From Chloroflexota bacterium (GTDB taxonomy: Bacteria; Chloroflexota; UBA11872; VXNJ01), in assembly GCA_009840625.1 (NCBI GenBank), contig VXNJ01000019.1, positions 1-64,000 of the forward strand: 64,000 nucleotides of DNA. The letters run 5' to 3'. Under the pieces are notes generated by a model. That model was not told the DNA's origin and searched no databases. It saw only the letters and a program-made list of their open reading frames with translations. The position numbers and the translations under genes are program-made. Below, piece after piece: positions 6,805 through 26,599 of this stretch (the stretch's first letter is position 1; every line of letters begins with the position of its first letter).

Positions 6805-6826
6805 AGGAGGGGGGGCATGTCCCCTA
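6805..6826. terminator. Weak G/C-rich hairpin after the SDR gene
   Basis: A G-run (within 6808-6815) and CCCCT (6821-6825) can pair around a short loop about 25 bases after the SDR stop. There is no following T-tract, so a terminator role is only possible. Confidence 0.25.
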
Positions 6827-6994: not shown

Positions 6995-7013
6995 TAAGTT
7001 CTAAATGTGTTGG

Positions 7014-8222: not shown

Positions 8223-8317
8223 GCTTTTTCGCCCCAATTCGGCCCGATACATGTGCCTCCGTGCGCGCTCTTCAGATCCGTATGGGCTTCCCCGGTTCGT
8301 CCCTGTCCGGGCACGGG

Positions 8318-9106
8318 TCATTTGACCAAGCGACGGTGGAGCAATGTCGCTGCTATGGGAATCAAGACGGCGCTCAGGACCAGCATGTAGACGATCGCCA
8401 GCAGGTGCGACATTTCCAGATTGCCGGTGGTGAACCCGCGTGCCAGATGCACGGCGGGCGTGAGCGGTGCGGCCCAGGCAATTGGTTCAACCCAATCCGG
8501 CAACGCCGATATCGGATAGAACGCTCCGCTGAAGAAGTAAAGCGGAGACGCCACGACCGTGAACGTCAGCGACAGGACGTGGATATTCGGGGCCAAAGCG
8601 GCAAAAATCAATCCCAGCGCGCCGAACTGCACCCCGATCAGGGCCGCGGCAAGCAGCACGCCCACGCCATATACGGATTCGATCCAACCGATCGCGGCAG
8701 CGACCGCGCCCACGCATACGGCCGTAATAATCGCCCTGGTCACGGCCCAGGAAATTTCCCCCAGAGCCAATTCGCGCGTACTGACGGGGGCGGTAAGCGT
8801 CGTCTCGAATACGCCTTTTTGGATGCGGAAGAATGCGCCCCAGGAGCACTCAAAGATTGCGTGGAACATCGCCGACCCAGCGATGACACCGGGAGTAAGG
8901 AAGATCGCGTAGGGTATCCCTTCAACGTCCTGTACCAATCTCCCAATACCGATGCCAACGGCGATCAGGGCGACGAAGGGTTCGAGGAAGTACCAGGACA
9001 TGGCGGTTAACCACGTATGCCTTAGTACGAGGGCATGCCGGAACCATATCCCCGCGATGCTGCGGGGCCTGACGCCCGCGATGTAGCTGCCTTGCGCTGC
9101 GGCCAC
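8318..9106 (-). CDS. ABC-2 type transporter permease (NodJ-like)
   Basis: 262-residue integral membrane protein with about six hydrophobic segments and the diagnostic 'YFFSGAFYPISALPDW' motif of the NodJ/ABC-2 permease family before the last helices. It overlaps the end of the ATP-binding gene by one base (ATG at 9106), so the two form one exporter. The family exports lipo-oligosaccharides, drugs or polyketides; the substrate here is unknown. The N-terminus has a short cytoplasmic extension of about 25 residues. Confidence 0.85.
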   Translation of the reverse strand: MAAAQGSYIAGVRPRSIAGIWFRHALVLRHTWLTAMSWYFLEPFVALIAVGIGIGRLVQDVEGIPYAIFLTPGVIAGSAMFHAIFECSWGAFFRIQKGVFETTLTAPVSTRELALGEISWAVTRAIITAVCVGAVAAAIGWIESVYGVGVLLAAALIGVQFGALGLIFAALAPNIHVLSLTFTVVASPLYFFSGAFYPISALPDWVEPIAWAAPLTPAVHLARGFTTGNLEMSHLLAIVYMLVLSAVLIPIAATLLHRRLVK

Positions 9107-10035
9107 TATTCGTCCGCCAACCCTCTCCCTGCCACCGAAAGGAAAACGTCTTCCAGGTTGGCGGGGCGATACGAAACTCGCACTCCGTCAAGAGAAGACA
9201 GGTCCGGGCGCCCCCCATTGGCGGCCGTAACCGTAATCACGGCGCCGGCTTCCCGGTAGTTGAGGCCGCAATTTCGGATCCAGTCAATCGCGTCTTTGCG
9301 CGAGCTATTAGAGGTGCGAACCAGAGCCACTTCATCGCCGGCGTAACTGTTGACCAGTTCGTCCGGTGCCCCTTCGGCCAGGATCTTGCCGTCGTTCATG
9401 ATCGCGAGTCGGTCGCACAAAGCGGATGCCTCGTCCATGTAATGGGTCGACATCAGGATCGTGACCCCGGCCTGTTTCATCGTTTCCAGCTCCTGCCAGA
9501 CACGGTTGCGTCCCTGCGGGTCAAGGCCGGTCGTGGGTTCGTCCAGCACGATGACCTGGGGCGTGGTCATGAATGCCCTGGCGATCGCCAAGCGCCGTTT
9601 CATGCCGCCGGATAGGTTGTCGATTTCGTCGCCGGCGCGGTCGGTGAGATCGAAGTACATCAGCACGGCATCGGCCCTACGGCGAGCCTCCGACCGGGAC
9701 AGCCCGGTCATGTAGCCGTACACGATGAGGTTGTTCCTGGGGTTCAGGTCGGTGTCGAGACCGTCCTGCTGGGTTACAACGCCGAGTACGTTGCGCACCT
9801 CCCGTCCCTGGCGGGCGACATCGATGCCCGCGACGGTCAACGCTCCAGAGGTAAGCGGCGAAAGACCGCTCACCATTCGCATGGTCGTCGTCTTCCCAGC
9901 GCCGTTCGGGCCCAGCAGACCGTACGTTTCGCCGCGTCGCACTTCGAAGGAAATGTCATCCACAGCCGCGACGTTGCCGAATTGCTTGGCTATGCGCGTC
10001 GCGCAAATGACCGCGCGTTCAAGCTGGCCTTGCAA
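9106..10035 (-). CDS. ABC transporter ATP-binding protein (NodI/DrrA-like)
   Basis: About 309-residue ABC ATPase. Visible motifs are Walker A GPNGAGKT, Q-loop TQQDG, signature LSGGMKRR, Walker B VIVLDEPT and H-loop STHYMDEA. The C-terminal ~90 residues are the extra domain found in NodI/DrrA exporters, ending with the usual 'NLEDVFLSVAGR' motif. TTG at 10035 has GGAGG seven bases upstream; TTG at 10041 would be too close to it. It is coupled to the downstream permease and energises the exporter. Confidence 0.88.
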   Translation of the reverse strand: MQGQLERAVICATRIAKQFGNVAAVDDISFEVRRGETYGLLGPNGAGKTTTMRMVSGLSPLTSGALTVAGIDVARQGREVRNVLGVVTQQDGLDTDLNPRNNLIVYGYMTGLSRSEARRRADAVLMYFDLTDRAGDEIDNLSGGMKRRLAIARAFMTTPQVIVLDEPTTGLDPQGRNRVWQELETMKQAGVTILMSTHYMDEASALCDRLAIMNDGKILAEGAPDELVNSYAGDEVALVRTSNSSRKDAIDWIRNCGLNYREAGAVITVTAANGGRPDLSSLDGVRVSYRPANLEDVFLSVAGRGLADE

Positions 10036-11653: not shown

Positions 11654-11804
11654 GCGCGTCGGGAGGCGCATCCATGTCGGTCGGGCCCCCGTGGAACGAC
11701 CGGGCCCGGCTGCAAACGCCCGCACAGCGGCAAGTGAGAACGGCCACCATCTGCCACCGAGCGCGCGTTGGGAAACCCGGTCCGGTTTGGCCGGGCCCGA
11801 TCCG

Positions 11805-13217
11805 ATGAGGCCGAACATCCTGGTCGTGATGAGCGATCAGCACGCGCGCCGCTACGCTTCGCCCTACGGTCACGAATTCATCCGGACCCCCAGCATGCAA
11901 CGCCTGGCCGATGAAGGGGTTACGTTCGAGAACGCCTACTGCAACTCGCCGATCTGCGGCCCCTCGCGAGCTTCCTTCATGACCGGTCAGTACGTGCCGG
12001 ACGTGGAGGCCTGGGACAACGCGACCGTCCTGCACAGCGATCTGCCCACCTGGGCCCATCTGCTCAATGCCGCCGGCTATGAGACCGTCTTATCCGGCAA
12101 GATGCACTTCCAGGGGGCAGACCAGCTGCACGGATTCCAGCGCCGCATCCTCTCCGACGTGCATGGCGATTCCAGCCCGGAATTGGCCGCCAACTGGACC
12201 GGATGGTTGACCGAAACCGCCGCCGCCGACTTGTCCATGTTCAAAGAGGTCGGCCCGGGCGAGCACCCTTATTCGGCATACGACGAAATCGCCACCTCTC
12301 AGGCCGGCGCCTACATCCGCTCGCGGCAGGGTTCCAAACGTCCATGGGCTCTTTTGGTCGGGTTAATAACACCGCACTACCCGTTTGTGGTCAGGCCCAA
12401 GTTCTGGGACCTTTACTTTCCGGACCACGTCGACTTGCCCGAGGTTCCGGCCCACAAGGACGATCTGCATCCGCACAACCGCCGCTTGGCCGAATGGTTC
12501 TCGTTCATGGACGTCCCAATTGAGCTGGCGGCCCGGGCCCGGGCCGGCTACTACGGGTTGATCAGCTACACCGACGCGTGCCTGGGTTCGCTGCTGGATG
12601 CAGTCGACCAATCAGGGCAGGCCGATGAAACGGTGGTCGTCTACACATCCGACCACGGCGAGGGCGCCGGCGAGCACGGCATGTGGAACAAGCACAACTT
12701 CTACGAAAACTCGGTCGGCGTACCGTTGCAAATCCGCTGGCCGGACCGAATTCCACCCAGAACGCGCGTGGCCCAGCCCGTGTCGCTGGTGGATCTGACG
12801 CGTACGATCGTTGACGCGGCCGGGTCCGACGCGCCCGATCACTGGACCGGCAATAGCCTGCTGCCGTTGGCCGAAGGCCAAGCCGTCGAGGGCGAGGGGT
12901 TGGTGATTTCTGATTTCCTGGCCGACGGAAGCTGGTCAGCATGCCGAATGGTGCGGGCCGGCAATCTCAAGTACAACTACTACCACGGGGAGCCGGAGGA
13001 GTTGTTTGATTTGGGTGCCGATCCGGTCGAATTGAACGACCAGAGTTCAAATCCGGCCTACGCCAAGGTATTGCAGCGCATGCGGGCCATCGCCATGGCG
13101 AGGTTTGACCCCGAGGAGGTAACTTCCCGCGTATTGCTCTCGCAGCAAAAGCGCAATCTGATTCGCGCCGGTTGCGCGTTTTCCGGCAGCGGTCCGTGGA
13201 CTCCGGGGAATCCGTAA
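11805..13217 (+). CDS. Sulfatase (formylglycine-dependent, type S1)
   Basis: 470-residue alkaline-phosphatase-superfamily hydrolase. The C-x-P-S-R signature is C51-G-P-S-R, so Cys51 is the expected formylglycine residue. Metal ligands lie at D11-Q12 near the N-terminus and in the YTSDHGEGAGEHG segment. No signal peptide is apparent, so it is probably cytoplasmic. The ATG at 11805 places the PNILVVMSDQ strand at the start, as in the family; an upstream in-frame ATG at 11691 would add an unrelated extension. The substrate is presumably a sulfated carbohydrate or small sulfate ester. It requires a formylglycine-generating enzyme, which is not in this window. Confidence 0.9.
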   Translation: MRPNILVVMSDQHARRYASPYGHEFIRTPSMQRLADEGVTFENAYCNSPICGPSRASFMTGQYVPDVEAWDNATVLHSDLPTWAHLLNAAGYETVLSGKMHFQGADQLHGFQRRILSDVHGDSSPELAANWTGWLTETAAADLSMFKEVGPGEHPYSAYDEIATSQAGAYIRSRQGSKRPWALLVGLITPHYPFVVRPKFWDLYFPDHVDLPEVPAHKDDLHPHNRRLAEWFSFMDVPIELAARARAGYYGLISYTDACLGSLLDAVDQSGQADETVVVYTSDHGEGAGEHGMWNKHNFYENSVGVPLQIRWPDRIPPRTRVAQPVSLVDLTRTIVDAAGSDAPDHWTGNSLLPLAEGQAVEGEGLVISDFLADGSWSACRMVRAGNLKYNYYHGEPEELFDLGADPVELNDQSSNPAYAKVLQRMRAIAMARFDPEEVTSRVLLSQQKRNLIRAGCAFSGSGPWTPGNP

Positions 13218-14351: not shown

Positions 14352-14357
14352 AGGAGG
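14352..14357 (+). promoter_or_regulatory. Consensus ribosome binding site that points to an ATC start
   Basis: AGGAGG at 14352-14357 is followed after exactly 8 bases by ATC at 14366, the codon where family homology begins. No ATG, GTG or TTG is available in the frame between the TGA at 14345 and the dinucleotide-binding motif. Confidence 0.6.
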
Positions 14358-14365
14358 CTTCCAAG

Positions 14366-15931
14366 ATCAGGTACGACACCGTAATCGTTGGCGCCGGTTC
14401 CGCCGGCGCGGTGCTGGCTACCAGGCTTTCGGAGGACCCGGACAGGTCGGTGTTGCTGTTGGAAGCCGGCCCCGACTATCCGGATCTGGAGCAATTGCCG
14501 GACGAGATCAAGTACGGCTACGGCGAACAGAACATCTGGGCCAAAGCGTTCGGCTACGACAGTCCGTACAACTGGGAATATGAGGCTCGGGCCACCGACG
14601 ACCTCCCGGCGATCATGATTCCGCGCGGCAAGGTGGTCGGTGGATCTTCGGCGGTGAACGCCCAGATTTTTCTGCGGGGTATTCCCGAGGACTTTGACAG
14701 TTGGGCGGCGGCCGGAAACGAGGGCTGGGCGTTTGAGGACGTCCTGCCGTACTTCAAGGCGGTCGAATCCGACCGCGACTACGGTGAAACCGATGTCCAC
14801 GGAGCCAGCGGACCCATCATCGCCCGTCGCTGGCCGGAGGAAGAGTGGCTGGCCGACGAGCTCGCGTTCTACACCGCGGCGCGCGAGTCCGGATTCCCGC
14901 ACAGCCCCGATCTGAACGACCCCGGGTCGACCGGGGTCGGACCAATGCCGATGAACAACCCGGGCCGAATCCGCTACAGCACCGCGGTCGGGTATCTGCC
15001 GCAGGCCCGGCATCGCCTAAATTTCACGATCAGGGCCAATTGCCACGTTCACCGGGTGCTCATCTCCGACGGGCGTGCCCACGGAGTGCTGGTCGAGAGC
15101 GGCGGCGAACTGTTCGAGGTGCAGGCCGAAGAGGTGATCCTCTCGGCGGGATCGATCGGTTCACCGCACATCCTGCAACTCTCCGGTGTCGGGCCGGCCG
15201 ACGAATTGGCGGCGGCCGGCGTGTCGGTCGTCCACGACCTTCCCGGCGTCGGCCGCAACCTGCGCGACCACCCGCAGGTGCAGCTGGACTGGCTGGCCCG
15301 GCCCGGTCACAGACTCGATCCGCTGTCGCCGACGATGCAGGTTGGATTGCAGTACACCGCGTCAGGTTCGTCGTTGCGCAACGACATGTTCATCCACGCG
15401 TTTTCCTACGTGACCGATCGGAGTTTCTACCTCTCAACCACCGGCAAGCCAATCGGGATGGGAATGATCGTTGCGCTGTATCTTGCCGAAGGCAGCGGGC
15501 ATCTGCAGCTGCGCTCGGCAAATCCCCACGACAAACCGCTGCTGGACTACAACTACCTGGTTGAAGAATCCGACCGACGGCGCCTGCGCGAGGGAGTGCG
15601 GCTGTGTGCCAGGTTTGGCGAGTGGGATTCTTACGCCGAAGTTATTGAGAGTCCTTTGAACCCGACCGGCGCCGACCTGGTCTCCGACGGCTCGCTGGAT
15701 GCCTGGATCTCCGGCAACATCCGGACCAGCCACCACGTTTCCAGCACGTGCAAGATGGGTCCCTCGTCCGACCCCGGAGCGGTGGTCGACCATACCGGAT
15801 CGGTACACGGAATCGCCGGACTCCGGGTGGCTGACGCGTCGATCATGCCCGATTGCGTGAGGGCAAACACCAATCTGTCGACGATGATGATTGGGGAACG
15901 CATTGCCGCAATCATTCGCGGCGAAAGCTAG
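14366..15931 (+). CDS. GMC family oxidoreductase (choline/alcohol dehydrogenase-like)
   Basis: 521-residue FAD-dependent oxidoreductase. The N-terminal beta-alpha-beta reads YDTVIVGAGSAGAVLATRL, then come the E-A-G ribose-binding end, the GGSSAVNA motif of GMC signature 1, GSIGSPHILQLSGVGP (signature 2) and a C-terminal catalytic pair (His in TSHHVSSTCKMG; Asn in RANTNLSTMMIGE). These enzymes oxidise primary alcohols such as choline or glycolaldehyde-type substrates. The conserved Gly motif lies upstream of the first conventional start (GTG 14411), so the true start is apparently ATC at 14366, 8 bases after AGGAGG. It is followed 72 bases later by the aminotransferase gene, suggesting a common pathway. 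Confidence 0.88.
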   Translation: MRYDTVIVGAGSAGAVLATRLSEDPDRSVLLLEAGPDYPDLEQLPDEIKYGYGEQNIWAKAFGYDSPYNWEYEARATDDLPAIMIPRGKVVGGSSAVNAQIFLRGIPEDFDSWAAAGNEGWAFEDVLPYFKAVESDRDYGETDVHGASGPIIARRWPEEEWLADELAFYTAARESGFPHSPDLNDPGSTGVGPMPMNNPGRIRYSTAVGYLPQARHRLNFTIRANCHVHRVLISDGRAHGVLVESGGELFEVQAEEVILSAGSIGSPHILQLSGVGPADELAAAGVSVVHDLPGVGRNLRDHPQVQLDWLARPGHRLDPLSPTMQVGLQYTASGSSLRNDMFIHAFSYVTDRSFYLSTTGKPIGMGMIVALYLAEGSGHLQLRSANPHDKPLLDYNYLVEESDRRRLREGVRLCARFGEWDSYAEVIESPLNPTGADLVSDGSLDAWISGNIRTSHHVSSTCKMGPSSDPGAVVDHTGSVHGIAGLRVADASIMPDCVRANTNLSTMMIGERIAAIIRGES

Positions 15932-16003
15932 CCGGATTCCCGGCGCCGGCGCACGTAGGTTTGCAAGGGACCCGAGCGGGATTTTTTCCGACCATGGCTG
16001 TTT

Positions 16004-17287
16004 ATGAGTAAGCGATCTACCGCCGAAATGCTGGCTCGCCGCGAATTGCTGCTTGGCACCGGCGTCACCACGTTTTACCGGGATCCGGTCCACATCGTGC
16101 GTGGAGAGGGTGTCTGGCTATATGACGCCGATGGGCGGCGCTACCTCGACGTCTACAACAACGTGCCCTGCGTGGGGCACGCCAATCCCCGTGTCGTAAA
16201 TGCGATGCGACGCCAGACGGAAACCCTCAACGTCCACTCGCGCTACCTGCACGAGGGCGTCCTCGATTACGCTGAGCGCCTGACCGGGTTGCACGCCGAT
16301 CCGATCACGACGGTGGTGTTCACCTGCAGCGGGACCGAGGCCAACGAGGTAGCGATCCAGATGGCGCGCGCCGCGACCGGCGGCAAGGGCCTGGTCTGCA
16401 CTGACGCCGCCTATCACGGCAACTCCACCGAGGTGCGCAAGCTGACCCGGTTGCGCAAACAGGAAAACCCCGAATACCGCTCGATTCCGACACCGCAGCG
16501 CTACCGGCCGGTCCGTGATGGTCTGGCCGACGATGCGTTAACCGATGCCTATCTCGAACTGCTGCAGGAGCAGATCGAAGGGTTTGCCGCCGATGGAGTG
16601 CCGTTTGCCGGGGCGCTGTTCTGTCCGATCCTGGCCAACGAGGGTCTGCCCGACATTCCGCCCCGATTCATGCTCCGGGCGGCCGAATTGGTTAGGGCCG
16701 CCGGCGGACTTCTGATCTGTGATGAGGTGCAGGCCGGGTTCGCGCGCACCGGCCAATGGTGGGGCTATCAGACTTCGGGCTTTGTTCCCGATGTCGCGGT
16801 GATGGGCAAACCGATGGGGAATGGCCTGCCGCTTGCCGGCGTGGCCGCCTCCGGCGAATTGGTCAACGCATTCCGATCCAAGACGCGCTATTTCAACACG
16901 TTCGCCTCAAGCCCCCTACAGGCCGCGGTCGGACAGGCGGTGATCGACGAAATCGAGGAGCGAGACCTTACCGCCAGCGTCGCCGAGATCGGATCTTATC
17001 TGCGAGAGCAGCTGCGCGCCATCGGCAGGGACTGCCCGGCTATCGCCGAGGTGCGCGGCCACGGTCTGTTCGTTGGCATCGAATGGGTCAAGGACCGAGG
17101 TAGCAAGGACCCTGATCCAGACGGGGCCGAGGAAATCATGAATCGGCTGCGCCGGTCCGGTTTTCTGATGGGACGATCCGGACAGCACGGCAACGTGCTG
17201 AAGGTTCGACCCCCGCTGGTGTTTGAGCGCGAACACGCCGACCTTTTTCTGGAGGGGTTCGCGGCCGCCGTCAGCAAGCCGACCTGA
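16004..17287 (+). CDS. Class III PLP aminotransferase or phospho-lyase (AGXT2-like)
   Basis: 427-residue fold-type I PLP enzyme. It has SGTEANEVA (cofactor phosphate site), YHG, the metal-like CDEVQAGFARTG strand with Asp240, and the Schiff-base Lys269 in VMGKPMGNG. The overall look, with 'HVNSRYLHE' and 'VGHANPRVV'-type motifs, is closest to the AGXT2/AGXT2L group. That group includes alanine-glyoxylate aminotransferases and the ethanolamine-phosphate and phosphohydroxylysine phospho-lyases. A kinase-like gene starts 5 bases after its stop, an arrangement seen as APH-aminotransferase pairs or fusions; this supports a phospho-lyase role, but only by context. Confidence 0.87.
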   Translation: MSKRSTAEMLARRELLLGTGVTTFYRDPVHIVRGEGVWLYDADGRRYLDVYNNVPCVGHANPRVVNAMRRQTETLNVHSRYLHEGVLDYAERLTGLHADPITTVVFTCSGTEANEVAIQMARAATGGKGLVCTDAAYHGNSTEVRKLTRLRKQENPEYRSIPTPQRYRPVRDGLADDALTDAYLELLQEQIEGFAADGVPFAGALFCPILANEGLPDIPPRFMLRAAELVRAAGGLLICDEVQAGFARTGQWWGYQTSGFVPDVAVMGKPMGNGLPLAGVAASGELVNAFRSKTRYFNTFASSPLQAAVGQAVIDEIEERDLTASVAEIGSYLREQLRAIGRDCPAIAEVRGHGLFVGIEWVKDRGSKDPDPDGAEEIMNRLRRSGFLMGRSGQHGNVLKVRPPLVFEREHADLFLEGFAAAVSKPT

Positions 17288-17291
17288 GCAC

Positions 17292-18293
17292 TTGCCTGAA
17301 CCGACCAACCTCGGCGCGGCCGAATTCCACGCCATTGCCGAACGCGCGTTGCCCTACTGGGGACTCAAACCCGCCCGCATTGAACTGGTCGCCAACGCCG
17401 AGAACTGCGTGTTTCGGCTGGAGATGCCGGATTCGCGGGCATACGTGCTGCGGATTCACCGCCCCGGTTACCACTCGCTGACCGAGCTCGAATCTGAGCT
17501 GGAGTGGGTACGGGCCCTCGCCGATGCCGGCATCAGCGTGTCGGTCGGCCGCCCGACCCTGGACGGTCGCGCTTACGCGGAAGTCCCGACCCCCGACGGG
17601 GAGTCCTCGCGGTTCGTCGGCCTGATCGATTGGACCGAGGGCCAGATCCTGGATGACGAGATCGAGCTCGAATCCGACCCCGATCGGATCGCGGCCCGCT
17701 TTGAGCAAATCGGCCGCATCGCTGCAAGGATCCACAACCAGGCCAGCCTCTGGTCACCGCCGCCGGGATTCGTCCGTCACGAATTCGACGTGCCCGGATT
17801 TGTCGGCGAGTCCCCGTTCTGGGGTCGGTTCTGGGACGTGCCGGTCCTGCGCCCAGAGCAGCGCGCAATACTGCTCCGCGCCCGCGATGGGGTAGCCAAT
17901 TACCTGGGCGGTTACGGTAAGGATCCCGGCATTTATTCGATGATTCACTCCGACCTTCACCCCAGGAACTTCGTGGTAACCGCATCCGGCGATCTGCACG
18001 TAATCGACTTCGACGATGCTGGTTTCGGTTGGCACCAGTACGAACTGGCGACGGTGCTGTGGGAACTCGAGGGGGAGCCCGGTTTTGAAGAGGTCCGGCA
18101 GGCGTTGCTGACCGGATACCGGTCCTTGCGGCCGATCAGCGACGAAGCGGTGGCTTTAATCCCGCTTTTCCTGGTGATCAGAAGCCTGGCGTCGATCGGC
18201 TGGCGGTGGGAACGTCCCGATCTCGGTCGCGGCGCGACGATCCCGCAGTTGGTTGACGAGGCCTGTCGAAGCGTGGTGGCGTTCGGTTTCTGA
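17292..18293 (+). CDS. APH-like small-molecule kinase coupled to aminotransferase
   Basis: 333-residue aminoglycoside-phosphotransferase/choline-kinase-fold protein. The N-lobe carries a VLRIHRPGY strand with the ATP-binding region. The Brenner motif is HSDLHPRN (about 219-226, catalytic Asp221), and the metal-binding motif is IDFDDAGFG (about 239-246). TTG at 17292 lies 5 bases after the upstream stop, so translation is likely coupled. It is a likely kinase of a hydroxyl group on an amino alcohol (hydroxylysine, ethanolamine or similar) that would feed the adjacent PLP enzyme. Substrate identity is inferred from the pairing. Confidence 0.82.
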   Translation: MPEPTNLGAAEFHAIAERALPYWGLKPARIELVANAENCVFRLEMPDSRAYVLRIHRPGYHSLTELESELEWVRALADAGISVSVGRPTLDGRAYAEVPTPDGESSRFVGLIDWTEGQILDDEIELESDPDRIAARFEQIGRIAARIHNQASLWSPPPGFVRHEFDVPGFVGESPFWGRFWDVPVLRPEQRAILLRARDGVANYLGGYGKDPGIYSMIHSDLHPRNFVVTASGDLHVIDFDDAGFGWHQYELATVLWELEGEPGFEEVRQALLTGYRSLRPISDEAVALIPLFLVIRSLASIGWRWERPDLGRGATIPQLVDEACRSVVAFGF

Positions 18294-18362
18294 CCTTCGT
18301 TGCCTCGGTCCCGACTCGGCGCCAACCCCCGGAGGGGATGACTCCAAACGCCGAAATTGCGC

Positions 18363-19490
18363 CTAGCTACTTTCGAGTTCTCGCAGCCGTTCAACCGATG
18401 GGATTACGTTGTGCAAGGCGGCCTGCTGGTGTGGCTGCAGGTCCTGCCCTCCTCCGGTTGCGATGTGGGTTGCGAAGGGATCGCCGGCGATCGATTTCTT
18501 GCCGCTTAGTTCTTCCATGACGGCAAGTCCGCAAAACGGGACGTAGATCGGGCTGTAACCGCCCTCGTGGCTCATAACCAGTCGCCCAGAACAAAGTTCG
18601 TCGGCGGCCTCCAGCAGCATTCGCGTCATTGCCCGGAAGGTGTCCGAGTGCGCCATCATCCGTGCCAACGGGTCGAAATTGCTGGCATCGAACCCGGACG
18701 GCACGATGATCAGGTCCGGCTTATAAGCCCGCAAGGCCGGGACCACGACCTGGCGGATTGTTTCGGTATAGGCTCCGTGCCCGCTGCCCGGCGGCAGGGG
18801 AATGTTGATGTTGAAGCCGTCGCCGTCGCTTTCACCGTGTTCGCCGATGGTGCCGCTGTCGCGCGGGAAGCACTCGTCCTGGTGAATCGACATCGTCAGA
18901 ACGTCGTTGCGATCGTAAAAAGCCTGCTGCGTGCCGTTCCCGTGGTGGACGTCCCAGTCCAGGGTCGCGATCCTGCTCAATCCGCGCTCGGACAGGGCGT
19001 GCATGGCCGCGATCGCGACGTTGCCGAAGATGCAGAACCCCATTCCCTGGTCGCGCTCGGCGTGATGACCGGGCGGGCGTACCAGCGCGTAGGCGTTGTC
19101 CACCTCGCCGTCGAGCACTGCGTCGACCGCCCTGATCGTTCCGCCGGCGGAAAGCAGCGCGATCTCGAATCCGCCCGTGGAGAACTCGGCGCCTATGCCG
19201 GCATCGCCGCCGCGCGCGGCCGAGAGTTTCCGCACCCGTTCGACGTGGTCGCGCGTATGAAACCGCAGCACCTGTTCGATAGTGGCCGGCTCCGGTTTTA
19301 GCCGGACCAGTTCCTCGGAGAAACCCGAAACTTCCAGGAGGTTGTTGAAGCGTCGCTTCGTATCGGGGTTTTCGTAATGTTCCCAGGCCTGCAGCCAGCG
19401 TCCGTGCTCGGGTCCGAGCGCCTGCCATCGGCCGGTGTCGTGCCACAGGTAGGACTCGTGATAGACCCATCCGGTCCGGCGCTCTGCCAT
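18363..19490 (-). CDS. Histone-deacetylase-fold amidohydrolase (acetylpolyamine amidohydrolase-like)
   Basis: 375-residue zinc hydrolase of the arginase/deacetylase superfamily. Motifs are RPPGHHA (His142-His143, general base pair), the zinc-binding DWDVHHGNG (Asp180, His182), the third ligand in PSGFDAS (Asp268) and the HEGGYSP glycine-rich loop. Bacterial homologues deacetylate N-acetyl polyamines or other acetylated amines. ATG at 19490 has AGGA nine bases upstream; ATG at 19499 is the alternative. It is convergent with the kinase gene and divergent from the second APH-like kinase. The neighbourhood fits removal of an acetyl group from an amine before phosphorylation and PLP-dependent elimination. 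Confidence 0.88.
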   Translation of the reverse strand: MAERRTGWVYHESYLWHDTGRWQALGPEHGRWLQAWEHYENPDTKRRFNNLLEVSGFSEELVRLKPEPATIEQVLRFHTRDHVERVRKLSAARGGDAGIGAEFSTGGFEIALLSAGGTIRAVDAVLDGEVDNAYALVRPPGHHAERDQGMGFCIFGNVAIAAMHALSERGLSRIATLDWDVHHGNGTQQAFYDRNDVLTMSIHQDECFPRDSGTIGEHGESDGDGFNINIPLPPGSGHGAYTETIRQVVVPALRAYKPDLIIVPSGFDASNFDPLARMMAHSDTFRAMTRMLLEAADELCSGRLVMSHEGGYSPIYVPFCGLAVMEELSGKKSIAGDPFATHIATGGGQDLQPHQQAALHNVIPSVERLRELESS

Positions 19491-19606
19491 GGCGGCCATT
19501 CCTGTTCGGTTGCAATCGGGGCCAATCCCCGGGCAGTCTATTCGGCCATACCGCGGGCCTGCCCTGGTGAAACCCGATCTCCGGCGCGCAAGCTTGGCGG
19601 CCGGAA

Positions 19607-20548
19607 TTGAAATCCGGGCGCCCCAGGCCACTGGACTCGGCAGTCGTGCAGCCGCTGCTGGACCGGGTCGCACCCGGTCATCGATTGGCGTCGGTGACCC
19701 CGGCCGGGGCTGCCTACACGAACCGGGTCCACATCGTCAGGGCGGTTTCGCCGCGGGGCCACGAAATCTGCCTGGTGATCAAGCAGTTGACCGATTCACT
19801 TGACGCGGAGCGGGCGACCGCCGAGTTTCGGGGGCTGGAAATCGCCCACCGGCACGGCATCCCGGTCCCGGAGCCGCTGCTACTTGACGCTTCGGGCAGC
19901 GAATTGGGAGTGCCGGGACTGGTAACCGGATTCGTCGCGGGCGCCCAGGTGATGCGCCCCAAAGACGTCGCGGCCTGGGCTGAGGCGATGGCCGATGCCC
20001 TGCTGGCGATTCACGACATCGCCCCTTCGGCAGACGAGCGGGACGGCCTCTATGACGGGGAAGCGATCGGGCTCTATTTCCTTAGCGGTCACTGGCCCGC
20101 CGCCAACGCCCGCCATCCGCTGTCAGAGCAGATTTACGGGGCGATCGAAGAGCTGCGTCCCGAGCTCGAATGCACCCGGCAGGCGTTTCTGCACATGGAC
20201 TTCTGGCCCGGAAACGTCCTGTGGGACCGGGACCGGATTGCGGCAATCGTCGACTGGGACGGTGCCGCGGTGGGAGACCGGGCGGTGGATGTCGGCAACT
20301 TTCGGATGGAGATGCACCTGCGCGGGATCAAGGAGGCCGCCGACATATTCCTGCGGCGCTATGAGGCCGGGGCCGGAGCGGTCAAGAACCTCGCGTTCTG
20401 GGAGCTGGCCGCGGCCGCCCGGCCGCTCCCCGATCCCTTCGCCTGGCTGCTCGATCCCCCCGCTGGCGCGGACAGCCGGGAACTGCTGCGCAATTTCAAT
20501 GAATTCGTCGCCGGGGCCGCGGCGCGGATCCGGCGCGGGCGCGATTGA
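19607..20548 (+). CDS. APH-like phosphotransferase
   Basis: 313-residue kinase-fold protein. The nucleotide-binding N-lobe ends in LVIKQL, the catalytic loop is HMDFWPGNVLW and the metal motif is VDWDGAAVGD. It is distinct in sequence from the kinase at 17292, which has IDFDDAGFG, so the cluster carries two different small-molecule kinases. TTG at 19607 is the earliest start; no good ribosome binding site is visible and the real start could be slightly downstream. The 116 bases between it and the divergent amidohydrolase start should hold both promoters. Confidence 0.8.
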   Translation: MKSGRPRPLDSAVVQPLLDRVAPGHRLASVTPAGAAYTNRVHIVRAVSPRGHEICLVIKQLTDSLDAERATAEFRGLEIAHRHGIPVPEPLLLDASGSELGVPGLVTGFVAGAQVMRPKDVAAWAEAMADALLAIHDIAPSADERDGLYDGEAIGLYFLSGHWPAANARHPLSEQIYGAIEELRPELECTRQAFLHMDFWPGNVLWDRDRIAAIVDWDGAAVGDRAVDVGNFRMEMHLRGIKEAADIFLRRYEAGAGAVKNLAFWELAAAARPLPDPFAWLLDPPAGADSRELLRNFNEFVAGAAARIRRGRD

Positions 20549-20604: not shown

Positions 20605-21483
20605 TCAGTGCGCGCTGGCACCCTCGAGCATTCTGAGAATCTCCCCCGACGCCGGGCTGCCGTCGCGGCAGGCTTCGGCCCAGCCTTTGGCATCGGCCCC
20701 GAATAAGTCGTCCCGGATCGAAACATCTGCGGTTCGATCCAGCAGGTTTCTGACCATTTCAGGGCGGTGGAACTGGACGGCGAAGTGCAGGGCGGTGGTG
20801 TTGCGGTAGGGGCGGGAGTCGACGTCGATGCCGATTTGGAGCAGGTAATCAACCACGCTGCGCCGGTCGTTCAAAGCGGCAAAGACTAAGGCTTCGCCGA
20901 TGATTTCAAGGTCATCCGCCGACGCGGGCTCCCCCGCGGGTCGACCCACGTCGGCCCAGTTTGGCCGGTAGGGACCTGGGTCGCGACGGAGAGTCAGGTC
21001 CGGCGACACCCAGTCGCGCACGGCCTCCAGCTGCCCGGCCGCCGCGGCCAGCCAGAGCGAGGGTCGGTGCAGGCCGTGATCAACCAGCACGTCGGCGGCT
21101 TCTTTGGAGCTGTGCATCGCCGCCGATTCGAGAGGGGTGATTCCGGCGTCGGCGCGGGCCGAAGGGTCGGCGCCGGCTGCCAGCAGTTGCCTGCACATTT
21201 CGGGCAGGTTCCAACATCCGGCCAGGTTCAGCGCCCGGTCCACTTCCGAGCCGGCCTTGATCAGGAGATCTACCACCGCCGGGTCGGGCGGAGCGAAGCC
21301 GGGTTGGGTGAGCCACTCCAGAGTCGTGTTACCGCTTGCGCGAGCGTGCACCAATCGGGGTTCTGATTCAAGTAATGCGCCAAGTTCGCTCACATTGCCC
21401 GTACGGGCGGCCCGCAGGGCGCGGGTGCTGCGGCGCGGGTCGATCATTGCCGCGGCCCCGATCAACAGCTCACGAAGGCCCAT
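20605..21483 (-). CDS. Ankyrin-repeat protein coupled to nuclease-helicase gene
   Basis: 292-residue protein with several ankyrin-like repeats: VSELGALLES, LPEMCRQLLAAGADP, TPLESAAMHSSKEAADVLVDHG, RSVVDYLLQIGIDVD, TALHFAVQFHRPEMVRNLLD. It has no enzyme domain, signal peptide or membrane segment. The start ATG at 21483 lies 14 bases inside the 3' end of the upstream TM0106-type gene, so the two are very likely co-translated. A protein-protein interaction role is expected from the fold; the overlap suggests it binds or regulates the nuclease-helicase, but this is inference. Confidence 0.78.
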   Translation of the reverse strand: MGLRELLIGAAAMIDPRRSTRALRAARTGNVSELGALLESEPRLVHARASGNTTLEWLTQPGFAPPDPAVVDLLIKAGSEVDRALNLAGCWNLPEMCRQLLAAGADPSARADAGITPLESAAMHSSKEAADVLVDHGLHRPSLWLAAAAGQLEAVRDWVSPDLTLRRDPGPYRPNWADVGRPAGEPASADDLEIIGEALVFAALNDRRSVVDYLLQIGIDVDSRPYRNTTALHFAVQFHRPEMVRNLLDRTADVSIRDDLFGADAKGWAEACRDGSPASGEILRMLEGASAH

Positions 21484-24400
21484 TTCGGTCCACGTCGGGC
21501 TTGTCTGACTCCCTGCCGACCGACCCATCCGGAGGGAGTTCCGCCAGTTCGAAAAATCGGGCCATCGCATTCGCGAGCCGCATTTGCCGTGGCGTGCGGC
21601 AGCGGACTTGGACCAGGTCCGGATTGGCAATTACTGCAGTCAGGCACTGGGCCCTGCTAGTGGCTACGTTTAGTCGGTTGAGGCTGTAGAGAAACTCCAT
21701 TCCTCGCGGGGCGTCGGCGGGGCTGCTAGTGGCCATCGAGTAGATGGACACCGGAGCTTCCTGACCCTGAAACTTGTCGACCGTTCCCACCCGCGCTCCG
21801 GGCATGGCATCCTCAATTTGGGCAACCTGGGCGTTGTAGGGAGTGATTATCAGGACGTCTTCGTCAGTTATTGGCCTCATGGACCCGGAAGGATCGCGGC
21901 AGCGCGGCCCGGACGCAAGCAGACTGCCTACGATCCGAGACAGCTCGCGGGCCTCTTCGGCTGATTTGTTCGAATTGCCAGCGTGGCTCACCGGAACCAA
22001 TCTGATTCCGGCCCCAGACAACGGGCCCGCACCCTCGAGCAACCACTTCTCGCGATCGGGGCGCGAACGCAATTGACCCTCGTAGAAGACTTCGGATGTA
22101 AAGCAACAGATCCGCGGGTGCAGCCGCCAGGTCCCGTCAAGAAAGACGCCCATCTCAGGGGAGATTACCCGATCGCCGTCGAGGATGTGACCCATGGCCG
22201 AACGCTCGGCCCCGGGCGGGTGAACGCCTTTCAGCGGTTGATTGAGCTGCTGCGGGTCTCCTAGCAGAACCAGATTCCGGGCACAGGCCGAAGCGGCCAG
22301 CGCGTCGGCCAGCGACATTTGACCAGCTTCGTCGATCACCAATACGTCTATACAGTCGATCAATTCTCCGCGGGCCCATAGCCAGGTCGTTCCACCGATG
22401 ACGTCGTAGGCGCCGCCAAGCAAAGCCTTGACTGCGTCGCCGGTCTCTAGCCTGTCGGCATAAGTAATCGACTGGTCCGGTGAACGCTGCCCCATGCGCA
22501 GGCGGCGGCCGCGTTTTTCTGCCGCCGCCGCGACCTTGGCCATCAGTTCGCCGTATACCTTGTGGCTGTTCGCAGTTACTCCAACCCGTAGCCCCGACTC
22601 GACCAGGTCGACGATGATCTCGGCCCCGGTGGTGCTCTTTCCTGAGCCCGGCGGTCCCTGAATTGCCAGATAACTCTCGTCAAGTCCCAGAGCCAGTTGC
22701 CGCGCCACCTCTGCCGGGTCCTGCCCCGGCAAGTGCAGCGGCTGGCCCGGTTTGTTGCCCAGCCGCGGAGGAACCCGCCGCAATAGGTCCCTACCGGCCC
22801 GGTTGGGGCCAGATGCCTGGATTCCGCGCTCTTGTGTCCAGCGGGCAAGCTGCCGGAGCCGTTCCGGTTTCGGTCCAGGATTGACGTGATCGAAAGGAAT
22901 CAGGGAGTTTGGCCGGGGGGCAGGACGACTGCTGCCGCGGCGGATTTGGATCTGGCGCCGGCGGTCGTCGACGCTAACGACGCTGCCCGCGGCTTTTCCG
23001 GTCGCGGGGTCGTGGGGCGAAGTATCCAGCTCAATTGCGTGTTCCTGGGCCGGATAGCTGAAGGCGTATATGGTCGACCTGGAGCGGGGTCGGGGATCAG
23101 GCCAGGACCCGGCTGGGCTGAGCCCGCCCAGCGTTGACGAGTCGATGATCCGTTCGGCATCGTCGAGTTCGTCGCGAAGCCTGAAGTACTCCCACCAGAA
23201 GGACTTGTCCTCGCGCCGGTGCCAGTTCAGCAGCTGTGCCAACAGCCAAGTCGCACGCTGATCGGAGTCCATCTCGGCGGTATTGGTTGGCAGGTTCGCC
23301 AACAACGCGTCGACCAGGCGGTTCACCCCCTGCTGCTGCTCCGAATCGCCGGTCTCTTCCGGCCGCGGTGCAGCCGGACGTGGGAGCTCGCGCCCCAGTT
23401 CGTCCCGTAGTTTTGAGCGCTCACGCTCCAGAAAATCACGCAACCGAAGCGTGGAAATGCAGTCGTCGCGGTTGTAGTCCTGAATCGCCTGCCGGAGGGA
23501 TTCGCGTTCCCTGCCCGCCTCCTCGTTGTCCAGTTCCAACCAGGTTTCGAATTCGACCAGGCTCTGGCCAGCCTCGCGTAGGTCTACTTTGCGGTCAAAG
23601 CCGTAAAGCGGTTCGAGTTTTTTGATCGAATAGCTCTCCACCGACGCGCGGATACCCTGGCGCACGGCCCGGTAAAGATCGACAAACACCCGGCCGCGCA
23701 ACAGGCGGTCAACCTCCTCTTCGCGGGTGTTGTGGCGTCCCGCCAGACGTCGTACTGCCGCCGGTTCGTACGGGGAGTAATGGTAGACGTGCAGATCGGG
23801 GTTCTTCTCGAGCCGCCCCGTGAGCAGGTCGATGAACTCCTCGAACGCGCGGCGTTCGGCGGCGGTCGTGACCGTACCCCGCTCGATCGACCAGAAAGCG
23901 TGAAATTTGAGGTCGTCCGCGGCGCCGGCCTCCAAGGCTCCGAATAGGTACTCGATTCCGTCGAATTCGCTTGATTCGAAGAATGGGTCGCCTTCGAAAT
24001 CGACGAAGAGGTCATCAGGGGTCGGCTCCGGCAACATCAGCAGGCCATGATCCTCCAACAACCCACCATCGCGGCCGGCCGGCGGCCCTATCCTCTCCGA
24101 AATCACCTCTCCTATCCGGTCGCCCCTGACCTGGATCTCGGCCTGATCGCGGGCCCGCGTCAGGGAGTGTCGGCCGATATCTTCGATTTCCGAGAGTTGG
24201 GCGTCCGCGAGCCGGGCAAGACCTGTGCGTGTTGTTATGCCGGATTGGCGTAGCCGCAACCGGTGCCGTGTATCCAGGTTCGCCACCAGCGCCAAGTCGT
24301 CTGATTCGCGCCAGCGTCGCCGGCAATTCACGCTCCAGCGGCAAACCTCGCAGTGCGCGACCGGATCCGGCGTCGATTTGGGTGGAAGATCGGAACCGTC

Positions 24401-25021
24401 CTCCAGGAACCGTTCGAAGGAGCCGGCCACGAGTCGGAAGTAGGCTGAGTAATCGGCGACCCTGAAACGGGCCTCTTCTCTCGCAAACCCGCCCAGCGCC
24501 AGGTACATGTTTTGCGGCTGGGTTCCCTGGATCCCTGCGACCAGGTCCGAATAAAAACACAGTTGCAGGACCGCCGAGGCTTTGGGCGAGCGGGCAAGTT
24601 TGGTGTCCCACACTTCGTAACCCCACAGGCCCAGATTGCTGGGCTCCTCGACCCTCCGCAAAAAGTCGGCAAATCCGAGGCGGCGACCGTCGTACAAAAC
24701 AGCCTGGTAAATGACCCCCGCCCCGGCTCGCATCGCTGCAATCGTGGCGTCGCGGCCGGCCCGCAGGCGCCCCTCGGTGGAAAGACTCTCGTCAAATTCG
24801 ATTTCGGTGACGCATGCACCGTTTTCCCTGAGCGTCCCGAGGAACCGACGTTCGTGCAATTCGCCGCGCTTGGCGATTCTTTCCAGCACGGGATCGTCTT
24901 CCAGCGGTGGATTCAGTAGCCCTGCCGCCAACGCCCGATCGAGCCGGGTTAAGTATTCACACTCCAGGTAACCCACCAGGTCGGTGGCCGAGTAAACGAA
25001 TTCCCCGCCCCGTTTACGCAT
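21470..25021 (-). CDS. TM0106-family RecB-like nuclease fused to SF1 helicase
   Basis: 1183-residue protein. Domains: an N-terminal RecB/Cas4-type nuclease (residues about 1-250) with VWDTKLA and the QLCFYSDL Q-x-x-x-Y motif, and the CEVC...C cysteine cluster near 225 that in Cas4/AddB relatives holds an Fe-S cluster; an RNase-H-like exonuclease domain beginning DLFVDFEGDPF (about 335); and a superfamily 1 helicase (about 770-1150). The helicase has Walker A GPPGSGKST (about 790), VIDEAGQM, GDPQQLNQP, ITPYNAQ, TVDKFQGQE and LNVATSRA. This is the full TM0106 architecture plus helicase. Such proteins are implicated in DNA end processing or defence; the function is not established. ATG at 25021. 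It overlaps the ankyrin gene. Confidence 0.9.
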   Translation of the reverse strand: MRKRGGEFVYSATDLVGYLECEYLTRLDRALAAGLLNPPLEDDPVLERIAKRGELHERRFLGTLRENGACVTEIEFDESLSTEGRLRAGRDATIAAMRAGAGVIYQAVLYDGRRLGFADFLRRVEEPSNLGLWGYEVWDTKLARSPKASAVLQLCFYSDLVAGIQGTQPQNMYLALGGFAREEARFRVADYSAYFRLVAGSFERFLEDGSDLPPKSTPDPVAHCEVCRWSVNCRRRWRESDDLALVANLDTRHRLRLRQSGITTRTGLARLADAQLSEIEDIGRHSLTRARDQAEIQVRGDRIGEVISERIGPPAGRDGGLLEDHGLLMLPEPTPDDLFVDFEGDPFFESSEFDGIEYLFGALEAGAADDLKFHAFWSIERGTVTTAAERRAFEEFIDLLTGRLEKNPDLHVYHYSPYEPAAVRRLAGRHNTREEEVDRLLRGRVFVDLYRAVRQGIRASVESYSIKKLEPLYGFDRKVDLREAGQSLVEFETWLELDNEEAGRERESLRQAIQDYNRDDCISTLRLRDFLERERSKLRDELGRELPRPAAPRPEETGDSEQQQGVNRLVDALLANLPTNTAEMDSDQRATWLLAQLLNWHRREDKSFWWEYFRLRDELDDAERIIDSSTLGGLSPAGSWPDPRPRSRSTIYAFSYPAQEHAIELDTSPHDPATGKAAGSVVSVDDRRRQIQIRRGSSRPAPRPNSLIPFDHVNPGPKPERLRQLARWTQERGIQASGPNRAGRDLLRRVPPRLGNKPGQPLHLPGQDPAEVARQLALGLDESYLAIQGPPGSGKSTTGAEIIVDLVESGLRVGVTANSHKVYGELMAKVAAAAEKRGRRLRMGQRSPDQSITYADRLETGDAVKALLGGAYDVIGGTTWLWARGELIDCIDVLVIDEAGQMSLADALAASACARNLVLLGDPQQLNQPLKGVHPPGAERSAMGHILDGDRVISPEMGVFLDGTWRLHPRICCFTSEVFYEGQLRSRPDREKWLLEGAGPLSGAGIRLVPVSHAGNSNKSAEEARELSRIVGSLLASGPRCRDPSGSMRPITDEDVLIITPYNAQVAQIEDAMPGARVGTVDKFQGQEAPVSIYSMATSSPADAPRGMEFLYSLNRLNVATSRAQCLTAVIANPDLVQVRCRTPRQMRLANAMARFFELAELPPDGSVGRESDKPDVDRNGPS

Positions 25022-25134
25022 CGTTTAAACCCGCCAAGAAGGGCGTCCATCGGCCCGCCGGATAGCGCCAAACCTCTTCGCCGTCGCCGCGAATCCAAAC
25101 ACGGCCAGGGGCTGGTTCCGGGCGATTCGCCGTT

Positions 25135-26292
25135 TCAAGGGCCACCCGCGAACAGATCCGTGTATGGCTTGTACTGGAACAACCGGTTGCGTTTGTTCCC
25201 GGTGATTTCTGCCAGCAAACCTTCTTCCACAAATCGGGCGATCAAGAGATTGGCTGGGCCAAAGCCGATCTTTGTGTTGCGGCTCACCAGGTTCACATTA
25301 ACGACCGGGAACTTGTACAGGAGTTCCAATATGCGCAATCCGTTGGCGGCCGAGCGCCCGAAGTTCTCGGTAACTTTTTGCCTGTGCTCTTCGCGAAGAG
25401 CGACAACCTCGGCCGCTGCCAATGCGGCCTGGTCGCTGACCTGCAACACACCTCTGAGGAAGAACATAACCCATTCCTCCCAGGCGCCCTCATCCCGTAC
25501 CGCCTGTAGGCGGAGGTAGTATTCGTCCCGGCGCCGGATGAAGTACTCCGAAAGAAACAACGCGGGTTTGCGCAGGGTCCGTGAAATGATCAGCAAGAAC
25601 GTGACCAGAAGCCGCCCGATTCGCCCATTTCCATCGAGGAATGGATGAATGGTTTCAAATTGCGCGTGCACCAGTGCGACCTTGACCAATATCGGCAAGT
25701 CCGACATTGAATGCCAGAACTTTTCCAGTTCCCCAAGCGCAGTCTGCATCTCGTGCGGCGGGGGAGGCACGAATACCGCTTCGTTTATGGTGCTGCCCGC
25801 AGCTCCAATCCAGTTTTGGGATGTCCTGAATTCCCCCGGACGGTATTGCGATCCGCGAACGTCCTTGATCAAAACGCCGTGGATTTCCTTGATTAAGCGC
25901 ATCGATAGCGGCAACGTTTCGAGGCGCTCCAGCCCGTGATTGAGTGCCTGGACGTGGTTAATCACTTCCCAGACATCGTCGCGTTCGTGCAGCCCGAAAA
26001 GCTTGGCCTCCGCGGCCAGCAAATCATTTAGCGAACTTTGCGTTCCTTCGATTTGGCTAGACAGTACGGCTTCTTTACGGATGAACATGTACATGAACAG
26101 GTCGGCGTCCGGCAAGATTTGGATTGATCCGTCAAGGCGGCCAAGCGCGATTCCGGCTTCTGAAAGCAGAGAGTGTCCGGTCTCGTCCAGTTGCAGAGGT
26201 GGGTCTGGTGGCAACGAGCGTGGGATGAACGCCCGGTATCCGGCGGGCTGGGAAATGTATCGACCTGCGCGGCCGATGGCAGTCGAGCTCAA
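25135..26292 (-). CDS. Fic/DOC family protein with N-terminal inhibitory motif
   Basis: About 385-residue class II Fic protein. It carries the catalytic HPFLDGNGRIGR loop (near residue 215; His is the general base for AMP transfer) and an in-cis autoinhibitory helix SSQIEGT (near residue 77), matching (S/T)xxxE(G/N). The C-terminal ~110 residues form a winged-helix-like domain ('VNLVSRNTKIGFGPANLLIARFVEEG'). Family members AMPylate proteins and are held inactive by the inhibitory glutamate. The start is uncertain: the frame is open far upstream, but homology begins at GRYISQPAGY, so TTG at 26292, with GAGAG upstream, is preferred. A short hairpin (TTGCC/GGCAA, 26324-26337) lies just upstream. 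Confidence 0.86.
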   Translation of the reverse strand: MSSTAIGRAGRYISQPAGYRAFIPRSLPPDPPLQLDETGHSLLSEAGIALGRLDGSIQILPDADLFMYMFIRKEAVLSSQIEGTQSSLNDLLAAEAKLFGLHERDDVWEVINHVQALNHGLERLETLPLSMRLIKEIHGVLIKDVRGSQYRPGEFRTSQNWIGAAGSTINEAVFVPPPPHEMQTALGELEKFWHSMSDLPILVKVALVHAQFETIHPFLDGNGRIGRLLVTFLLIISRTLRKPALFLSEYFIRRRDEYYLRLQAVRDEGAWEEWVMFFLRGVLQVSDQAALAAAEVVALREEHRQKVTENFGRSAANGLRILELLYKFPVVNVNLVSRNTKIGFGPANLLIARFVEEGLLAEITGNKRNRLFQYKPYTDLFAGGP

Positions 26293-26599
26293 ATTCGATG
26301 CTCTCGTCAAATGATTCTTGTTGTTGCCTGAGGGCAATAAAGAGTTGAAATTCCTTCCATATTGTCGCCAGCATGCAATAAGGACGATAATCGGCGCCGT
26401 TATTTTGACGGAATTGAATATGGATCGCCGCCCATCACCGCAGGGCTGTGATGTCGCGATTGCGCACCCGGACACATAGGGAAAGGCACGCCCAGCGATC
26501 ATCTAGCTCGCGCATTGCGGCCCCAACTCGGTCGCGATGTGAAGCGCCTCCGGAATTCAAAATCAGCTAACTTGGGCCCTCCTGGTATTGGAGATTGAC
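26293..26599. other. AT-rich divergent intergenic region (Fic / SDR)
   Basis: About 300 bases between divergent starts. The minus-strand Fic frame stays open across most of it but shows no family resemblance before residue GRYIS. The part next to the Fic gene is clearly AT-richer than its surroundings and contains a 5-bp hairpin TTGCC-TGAG-GGCAA at 26324-26337. It presumably holds both promoters; no consensus pair could be fixed. Confidence 0.4.

What the first reader, a model, noticed from the sequence alone, without database searches (positions are those of the whole stretch)
14366..20548. Candidate amino-alcohol pathway: GMC oxidase, PLP phospho-lyase-like enzyme, two kinases, deacetylase
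A class III PLP enzyme is coupled (5-base gap) to an APH-like kinase, next to an acetylpolyamine-amidohydrolase-like enzyme and another APH-like kinase, after a choline-dehydrogenase-like flavoenzyme. Known: AGXT2L-type enzymes eliminate phosphate from phosphorylated amino alcohols made by APH-fold kinases. Inference: an acetylated hydroxy-amine is deacetylated, phosphorylated and cleaved to an aldehyde and ammonia. The combination with a deacetylase seems unusual.
Basis: partly seen in the sequence, partly recalled or inferred. Interest (0 to 1): 0.6.

Follow-up and report, generated by a model that had tools for sequence, protein, structure and literature searches.

The report
Amino-alcohol kinase and phospholyase gene pair
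Two neighbouring genes encode a kinase and a vitamin-B6 enzyme that very probably break an amino alcohol down to an aldehyde and ammonia, a known kind of pathway, while the deacetylase and second kinase beside them look like unrelated neighbours.

Summary
The five genes are real, and the core of the finding holds. The class III PLP enzyme (16004-17287) is a phospholyase, not a transaminase: its best solved relatives are phospholyase 5g4i (333 bits) and human ETNPPL 6tor (281 bits), against 172 bits for the next class III enzyme. It carries all 12 lyase-specific residues checked and groups with lyases in a tree. The kinase 4 bases downstream (17292-18293) is its partner: such a kinase lies within one gene of the lyase in 57 of 59 relatives, and the two protein trees agree.

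The rest of the proposed pathway does not hold. The deacetylase is on the other strand and is HdaH/PA3774-like; PA3774 does not act on acetylpolyamines. Close relatives carry deacetylase and pair more than 100 kb apart, or the deacetylase alone. The second kinase is unrelated and not conserved near the pair. The flavoenzyme is co-directional but not conserved there.

A side result: the wider lyase clade, including 5g4i, repeatedly sits beside phenylacetate, homoprotocatechuate or tyramine catabolic genes, which suggests aryl-ethanolamine substrates (octopamine, noradrenaline). The window's own subclade lacks such neighbours, so its substrate is open.

The parts
16004..17287 (+). PLP-dependent phospholyase (class III aminotransferase fold), proposed to eliminate phosphate and ammonia from an O-phospho-amino-alcohol
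   Evidence: best PDB hits 5g4i phospholyase E 2e-98 and 6tor ETNPPL E 1e-82; 12 lyase-specific residues and catalytic Lys269 present; tree places it inside the lyases
17292..18293 (+). APH-fold amino-alcohol kinase (kinase 1), TTG start 4 bases after the lyase stop
   Evidence: PF01636; best PDB hit 6ef6, E 3e-44; motifs HSDLHPRN and DFD intact; adjacency conserved
14366..15931 (+). GMC-family FAD oxidoreductase, co-directional 72 bases upstream of the lyase; optional or uncertain member (apparent ATC start after AGGAGG)
   Evidence: not conserved beside the pair in G233/G387
18363..19490 (-). HdaH/PA3774-type Zn-dependent deacylase; neighbour, judged not part of the pathway
   Evidence: orthologs 74-78% identical lie elsewhere in G233, G387 and G320
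19607..20548 (+). second APH-fold kinase (kinase 2), not related to kinase 1 beyond the fold; judged not part of the pathway

Best explanation
The functional unit is the lyase-kinase pair 16004-18293. Kinase 1 uses ATP to phosphorylate the hydroxyl of a 1,2-amino alcohol. The PLP enzyme then binds the product as an aldimine, removes a proton next to the amine, expels phosphate, and releases an enamine that collapses to an aldehyde and ammonia. Shown here: family membership, intact catalytic residues, conserved pairing and matching trees. Inferred: the reaction itself and the substrate. The substrate is probably a substituted ethanolamine. Relatives in the wider clade sit beside arylacetate pathways, so an aryl-ethanolamine is one candidate, but the window's subclade has no such neighbours and its own genome lacks the two aromatic-degradation enzyme families searched. 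The GMC oxidoreductase may be co-transcribed and oxidise a related alcohol (weak). The deacetylase and kinase 2 are unrelated neighbours.
For: PDB sequence search: phospholyase 5g4i 333 bits, ETNPPL 281 bits, next class III enzymes 172 bits. Columns conserved in 52 lyases but absent from class III transaminase-like sequences and a racemase (R13, N52, N53, V54, N76, L82, W253, P270, N273, Y296, F297, K400) are all present in the window. IQ-TREE: window inside the lyases, joined at 99/99 with Chloroflexota orthologs 70-72% identical. Kinase within one gene in 57 of 59 relatives, 4-10 bases apart in two other Chloroflexota, and fused into one 800-1200 residue frame in many more. Lyase and kinase distance matrices agree (Mantel r 0.65, 0 of 5000 permutations). 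The pair and the deacetylase lie on different contigs in G233 and G387, and G320 has the deacetylase without the pair.
Against: No activity is shown for these proteins. Kinase 1 does not fall in the clade of the kinase 6ef6, so its substrate cannot be copied from it. The lyase scores below every NCBIfam equivalog cut-off. No dedicated aldehyde dehydrogenase lies next to the pair; the nearest one found is at 58622-60112 and matches methylmalonate-semialdehyde dehydrogenase. Mantel agreement can partly reflect shared species history.
Confidence: 0.82

Rival explanations
1. One reading: the deacetylase frees an acetylated hydroxy-amine, one or both kinases phosphorylate it, the lyase cleaves it, and the GMC enzyme acts before or after.
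For: All five genes lie within 6.2 kb. A Chelatococcus plasmid has a histone-deacetylase-family gene three genes from a kinase-lyase pair, and three sphingomonads have an HdaH-like gene 6-8 kb from the pair.
Against: Opposite strand. In G233 and G387 the deacetylase ortholog is on another contig, more than 100 kb away at least; G320 has it without the pair. The Chelatococcus protein is only 37% identical over 200 residues and its pair is in another lyase clade. The three sphingomonads are one lineage. Kinase 2 is found near no other pair.
Confidence: 0.08
2. The pair works on ethanolamine or 1-amino-2-propanol, as in the aminoacetone-utilisation (RMM) microcompartment, giving acetaldehyde or propionaldehyde.
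For: The best kinase relative of known structure is 6ef6, by my recollection the M. smegmatis (S)-1-amino-2-propanol kinase; that enzyme and compartment are cited in PMC8007038. R. jostii RHA1 has kinase, PLP enzyme, aldehyde dehydrogenase and shell proteins together.
Against: The RHA1 shell-linked lyase falls in the other, kinase-first clade and 6ef6 in a separate kinase clade. No shell-protein gene was among the window genes scanned.
Confidence: 0.3
3. The pair works on an aryl-ethanolamine (phenylethanolamine, octopamine or noradrenaline), giving an arylacetaldehyde.
For: The 39-row lyase clade that holds the window (0.998) includes pairs next to paa genes (Mesorhizobium, Pseudomonas insulae), hpa genes (Agrobacterium, Rhizobium, Roseateles), hpa plus phenylacetaldehyde dehydrogenase (A. 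aurescens pTC2, the 5g4i gene), and tyramine oxidase (Phyllobacterium). 12 of 29 rows against 0 of 15 in the kinase-first clade, p 0.003, rows not independent.
Against: The window's nine-row subclade shows no aromatic neighbours. Its own genome has no PaaA/PaaC or LigB-type match.
Confidence: 0.25
4. An ordinary class III transaminase beside a resistance-type phosphotransferase.
For: Automatic annotation of relatives reads 'aspartate aminotransferase family protein' and 'phosphotransferase'.
Against: Residues, tree, PDB scores and conserved pairing.
Confidence: 0.04

Closest known systems
Phospholyase A1RDF1 of Paenarthrobacter aurescens TC1 (PDB 5g4i)
   Same: Same lyase family and wider clade; lyase-specific residues shared (F for Y at 296); a kinase gene and an amino acid permease lie near it
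   Different: About 41% identical to the window lyase; on a plasmid beside hpa and phenylacetaldehyde dehydrogenase genes. The name A1RDF1 and its reported phosphoethanolamine activity are from my memory
Human ETNPPL (AGXT2L1, PDB 6tor) and PHYKPL (AGXT2L2)
   Same: PLP phospholyase fold and signature residues; the phosphohydroxylysine lyase works after an APH-fold kinase (PMC8154272, PMC9283133 and references there)
   Different: A separate clade that also holds the fused Chloroflexota proteins
(S)-1-amino-2-propanol kinase of the RMM/Aaum microcompartment (6ef6)
   Same: Closest solved kinase, E 3e-44; same kinase-plus-lyase logic
   Different: Different kinase and lyase clades; no shell genes here
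Fused kinase-aminotransferase proteins (NF004799/PRK06148, NF004800/PRK06149)
   Same: Same two enzyme activities inferred, in one chain; best NCBIfam matches of the lyase
   Different: Here the genes are separate and the lyase comes first; scores far below the cut-offs
HdaH / PA3774 deacylases
   Same: The deacetylase neighbour matches them over its full length, E 1e-111
   Different: PA3774 does not hydrolyse acetylpolyamines (PMC4784309); cluster 1b includes lysine deacetylases and amide hydrolases (PMC11532494)

Membership tests
PLP phospholyases (ETNPPL/PHYKPL/A1RDF1 group) | Class III fold with catalytic lysine | tested here: met
   PF00202 245 bits; K269 in GKPMGNG
PLP phospholyases (ETNPPL/PHYKPL/A1RDF1 group) | Closer to known lyases than to transaminases | tested here: met
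   333 and 281 bits versus 172; tree
PLP phospholyases (ETNPPL/PHYKPL/A1RDF1 group) | Lyase-specific residues | tested here: met
   12 of 12 present
PLP phospholyases (ETNPPL/PHYKPL/A1RDF1 group) | Phosphate and ammonia release, no transamination | not testable with these tools
   needs enzyme assay
APH-fold amino-alcohol kinases | Catalytic HxDxxxxN and DFD motifs and conserved pairing with a phospholyase | tested here: met
   HSDLHPRN at 219, DFD at 239; pairing
(S)-1-amino-2-propanol kinase (RMM type) | Falls in the 6ef6 clade | tested here: not met
   6ef6 groups with L050, L132, L213, L214 at 98/94, without the window
RMM/Aaum microcompartment | BMC shell genes beside the pair | tested here: not met
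   none among the neighbouring genes scanned; compare RHA1
PbfA (1-hydroxy-2-aminoethylphosphonate ammonia-lyase) | NCBIfam NF049939 cut-off 525 bits | tested here: not met
   202 bits
Acetylpolyamine amidohydrolase (deacetylase neighbour) | Closest to ApaH rather than HdaH | tested here: not met
   PA3774, HDAH and propanil hydrolase chains at E 1e-107 to 1e-112, ApaH 6phr at 5e-39
HdaH-type Zn deacylase (deacetylase neighbour) | Catalytic His-His, Zn ligands and Tyr | tested here: met
   GHH, DWDVHHGNG, SGFDA and GGYS present; residue roles from PMC4784309
Choline dehydrogenase BetA (GMC neighbour) | TIGR01810 cut-off 732 bits | tested here: not met
   335 bits
Choline sulfatase (gene 11691-13217) | TIGR03417 cut-off 433 bits | tested here: not met
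   405.5 bits, a near miss

The most novel reading that the evidence does not exclude
The wider lyase-kinase clade that includes this pair is an undescribed phosphorylative route for aryl-ethanolamines: octopamine, noradrenaline or phenylethanolamine is phosphorylated on its benzylic hydroxyl and cleaved to an arylacetaldehyde that feeds phenylacetate or homoprotocatechuate catabolism. The window's Chloroflexota subclade would use the same chemistry on a related, still unidentified substituted ethanolamine.
Probability: 0.35. Interest if true: 0.6.

Novelty: new member of a known kind. Interest (0 to 1): 0.38.

Why it matters
It gives a firm function class to a gene pair that databases label 'aspartate aminotransferase family protein' and 'phosphotransferase', in many soil and plant-associated bacteria. 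If the aryl-ethanolamine reading of the wider clade is right, it names a testable bacterial route for octopamine and noradrenaline, and it suggests a physiological role for the solved phospholyase 5g4i.

Tried and rejected
Deacetylase as a pathway member: rejected on strand, HdaH affinity, unlinked orthologs and occurrence without the pair.

Kinase 2 as a pathway member: best Chloroflexota relative 38% identical with no pair genes beside it; an APH-family gene next to the lyase in Phenylobacterium is only 25% identical to it.

GMC as a conserved member: only 44-46% homologs, elsewhere, in G233, G387 and G320. A GMC gene does lie beside the pair in A. leguminum and one lies about 3 kb upstream in G386, so I left it as uncertain.

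Aromatic catabolism in the window's own genome: no PaaA/PaaC and no LigB match.

Literature searches for a bacterial aryl-ethanolamine kinase-phospholyase route found nothing in the held library, which is not proof that none exists. Structure prediction was not run: sequence relatives of known structure already settle the folds, and no tool here compares pockets. A first automatic gene calling in high-GC loci picked antisense frames and was redone with codon-position GC.
Full report
WHAT IS THERE. The five reported genes are open frames with strong family matches. Reading the sequence, the PLP enzyme stops at 17287 and the kinase starts with TTG at 17292, a gap of 4 bases. The deacetylase (18363-19490) is on the minus strand, convergent with kinase 1 and divergent from kinase 2. 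Only the GMC gene, the PLP gene and kinase 1 run the same way without interruption. The simple terminator and promoter scan was no better than shuffles, so it says nothing about transcription.

THE PLP ENZYME IS A PHOSPHOLYASE. Against all PDB chains its best matches are 5g4i, named phospholyase (333 bits), and 6tor, human ethanolamine-phosphate phospho-lyase (281 bits); the next class III enzymes drop to 172 bits. I aligned 52 lyase-type sequences with five other class III family sequences from the window's own GTDB family and one racemase. Twelve positions checked are conserved in the lyases (5g4i has F for Y at position 296) and absent from the others. The window has all twelve. A maximum-likelihood tree puts the window with two Chloroflexota orthologs (72% and 70% identical; 99/99), sister to proteobacterial sequences at 56-58% (100/100), inside the lyases.

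THE KINASE IS ITS PARTNER. The best solved relative of kinase 1 is 6ef6 (E 3e-44), which I recall as the aminopropanol kinase of the M. smegmatis microcompartment; that enzyme is cited in PMC8007038, but the PDB code itself was not checked in a paper. In the 59 genome loci that encode a lyase at 39% identity or more, a kinase of one of two types lies within one gene of the lyase in 57, and within about 5 kb in the other two. In the two closest Chloroflexota genomes (G233, G387) the pair is intact, 10 and 4 bases apart. Most other Chloroflexota matches lie in frames of about 800-1200 residues, with a kinase upstream where fetched, which means fused proteins. Kinase and lyase distance matrices correlate (r 0.65; 0 of 5000 permutations; 30 non-redundant loci). 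The kinase-lyase logic is known: the vertebrate lyases and hydroxylysine kinase were identified together (Veiga-da-Cunha 2012, cited in PMC8154272 and, among gene-fusion references, in PMC12138971; the paper itself was not held).

THE NEIGHBOURS ARE NOT PART OF IT. Deacetylase orthologs 74-78% identical occur in three genomes of one Chloroflexota genus. In G233 and G387 they are on a different contig from the pair: from contig lengths and positions the distance is at least about 120 kb. G320 has the deacetylase but no lyase or kinase 1 match. None of the other window genes lies beside these three orthologs. The protein groups with PA3774, HDAH and propanil/dimethoate hydrolases. PA3774 does not hydrolyse acetylpolyamines (PMC4784309), and among the bacterial enzymes assayed polyamine deacetylation was found only in another cluster (PMC11532494). 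Against this, a Chelatococcus plasmid has a histone-deacetylase-family gene near a kinase-lyase pair and three related sphingomonads have an HdaH-like gene 6-8 kb away. These are two lineages in about 80 loci, and the Chelatococcus protein is only distantly similar. I count this as weak evidence only. Kinase 2 is not a relative of kinase 1 beyond the fold and was found near no other pair. The GMC enzyme's best relatives in G233, G387 and G320 are 44-46% identical and elsewhere; it misses the choline dehydrogenase cut-off by a wide margin and the MftG cut-off narrowly.

WHERE THE PAIR COMES FROM. None of the other 40 genomes of the window's class has a comparable lyase, while another Chloroflexota family does at 70-72%. 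This suggests horizontal acquisition. The phylum is inferred: G386, in the same phylum, has a contig of 11,527 bases, the length of the Anaerolineae contig JASJYH010000087.1 fetched by name, with the same match.

WHICH SUBSTRATE. Annotated plasmid records gave a lead. In the lyase clade that contains the window (39 rows, 0.998), pairs lie next to homoprotocatechuate genes (Agrobacterium, Rhizobium, Roseateles), phenylacetate genes (Mesorhizobium; Pseudomonas insulae), tyramine oxidase (Phyllobacterium), and, for the gene of 5g4i itself, hpa genes and phenylacetaldehyde dehydrogenase on pTC2. A kinase-lyase step on an aryl-ethanolamine would yield exactly the arylacetaldehyde these routes use. 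Excluding the window's subclade and L132, 12 of 29 rows in this clade have such neighbours, against 0 of 15 in the kinase-first clade, which holds the microcompartment lyase of R. jostii RHA1. Fisher p is 0.003, but rows are not independent, and I formed the idea from some of the same loci; perhaps five independent lineages stand behind it. The window's own nine-row subclade shows no aromatic neighbours, its kinase groups with neither the aminopropanol nor the aromatic-linked kinases, and its genome has no match to PaaA/PaaC or LigB. I therefore leave its substrate as an unidentified substituted ethanolamine.

VERDICT. New member of a known kind: a separate-gene lyase-kinase pair of the ETNPPL/A1RDF1 type. 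The unusual combination with a deacetylase is best explained as chance neighbourhood. The aromatic link of the sister groups is the part most worth testing.

Noticed in passing
L207 (P. aurescens pTC2), L202, L204, L206, L211, L219, L220, L222-L224: Lyase-kinase pairs related to the window's lie beside hpa, paa, phenylacetaldehyde dehydrogenase or tyramine oxidase genes, which suggests aryl-ethanolamine substrates, also for the solved phospholyase 5g4i.
   Followed up: partly
window 1274-4786 (-): Three adjacent genes match LmuB (302 bits), LmuC (weak) and LmuA with a Cap4 nuclease domain: a probable Lamassu anti-phage system.
   Followed up: partly
window 34685-37640 (-): Schlafen group 3 helicase (PADLOC PDC-S41, 391 bits) next to an HNH endonuclease: a possible defence pair.
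   Followed up: no
window 14352-14368: The GMC gene seems to start at ATC, 8 bases after AGGAGG; no ATG, GTG or TTG lies at that spot. Rare start codon or assembly error.
   Followed up: no
window 11691-13217, 32940-34556, 37914-39359: Three sulfatases in one window; the first just misses the choline-sulfatase cut-off (405.5 of 433 bits).
   Followed up: no
L212 (Chelatococcus pCO-6) 3813-9257: Histone-deacetylase-family gene, regulator, Zn hydrolase, kinase and phospholyase in a row beside ectoine catabolic genes: a better candidate for a deacetylase-kinase-lyase pathway than the window.
   Followed up: partly
L208 (E. coli plasmid NZ_CP107722.1): Kinase-lyase pair with a GABA transaminase, succinate-semialdehyde dehydrogenase and ABC transporter; a hydroxyputrescine-like substrate would fit. 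39 Klebsiella plasmid records also match the lyase.
   Followed up: no
window 21470-26502 (-): A 1183-residue helicase/RNase H-like protein (weak MkoA match) beside a Fic protein (SoFic, 373 bits).
   Followed up: no
L130 10503-11810 and L131 7425-8822: In both close Chloroflexota relatives a divergent amidase gene lies next to the pair; the window has a 32% identical amidase 4.3 kb upstream.
   Followed up: partly
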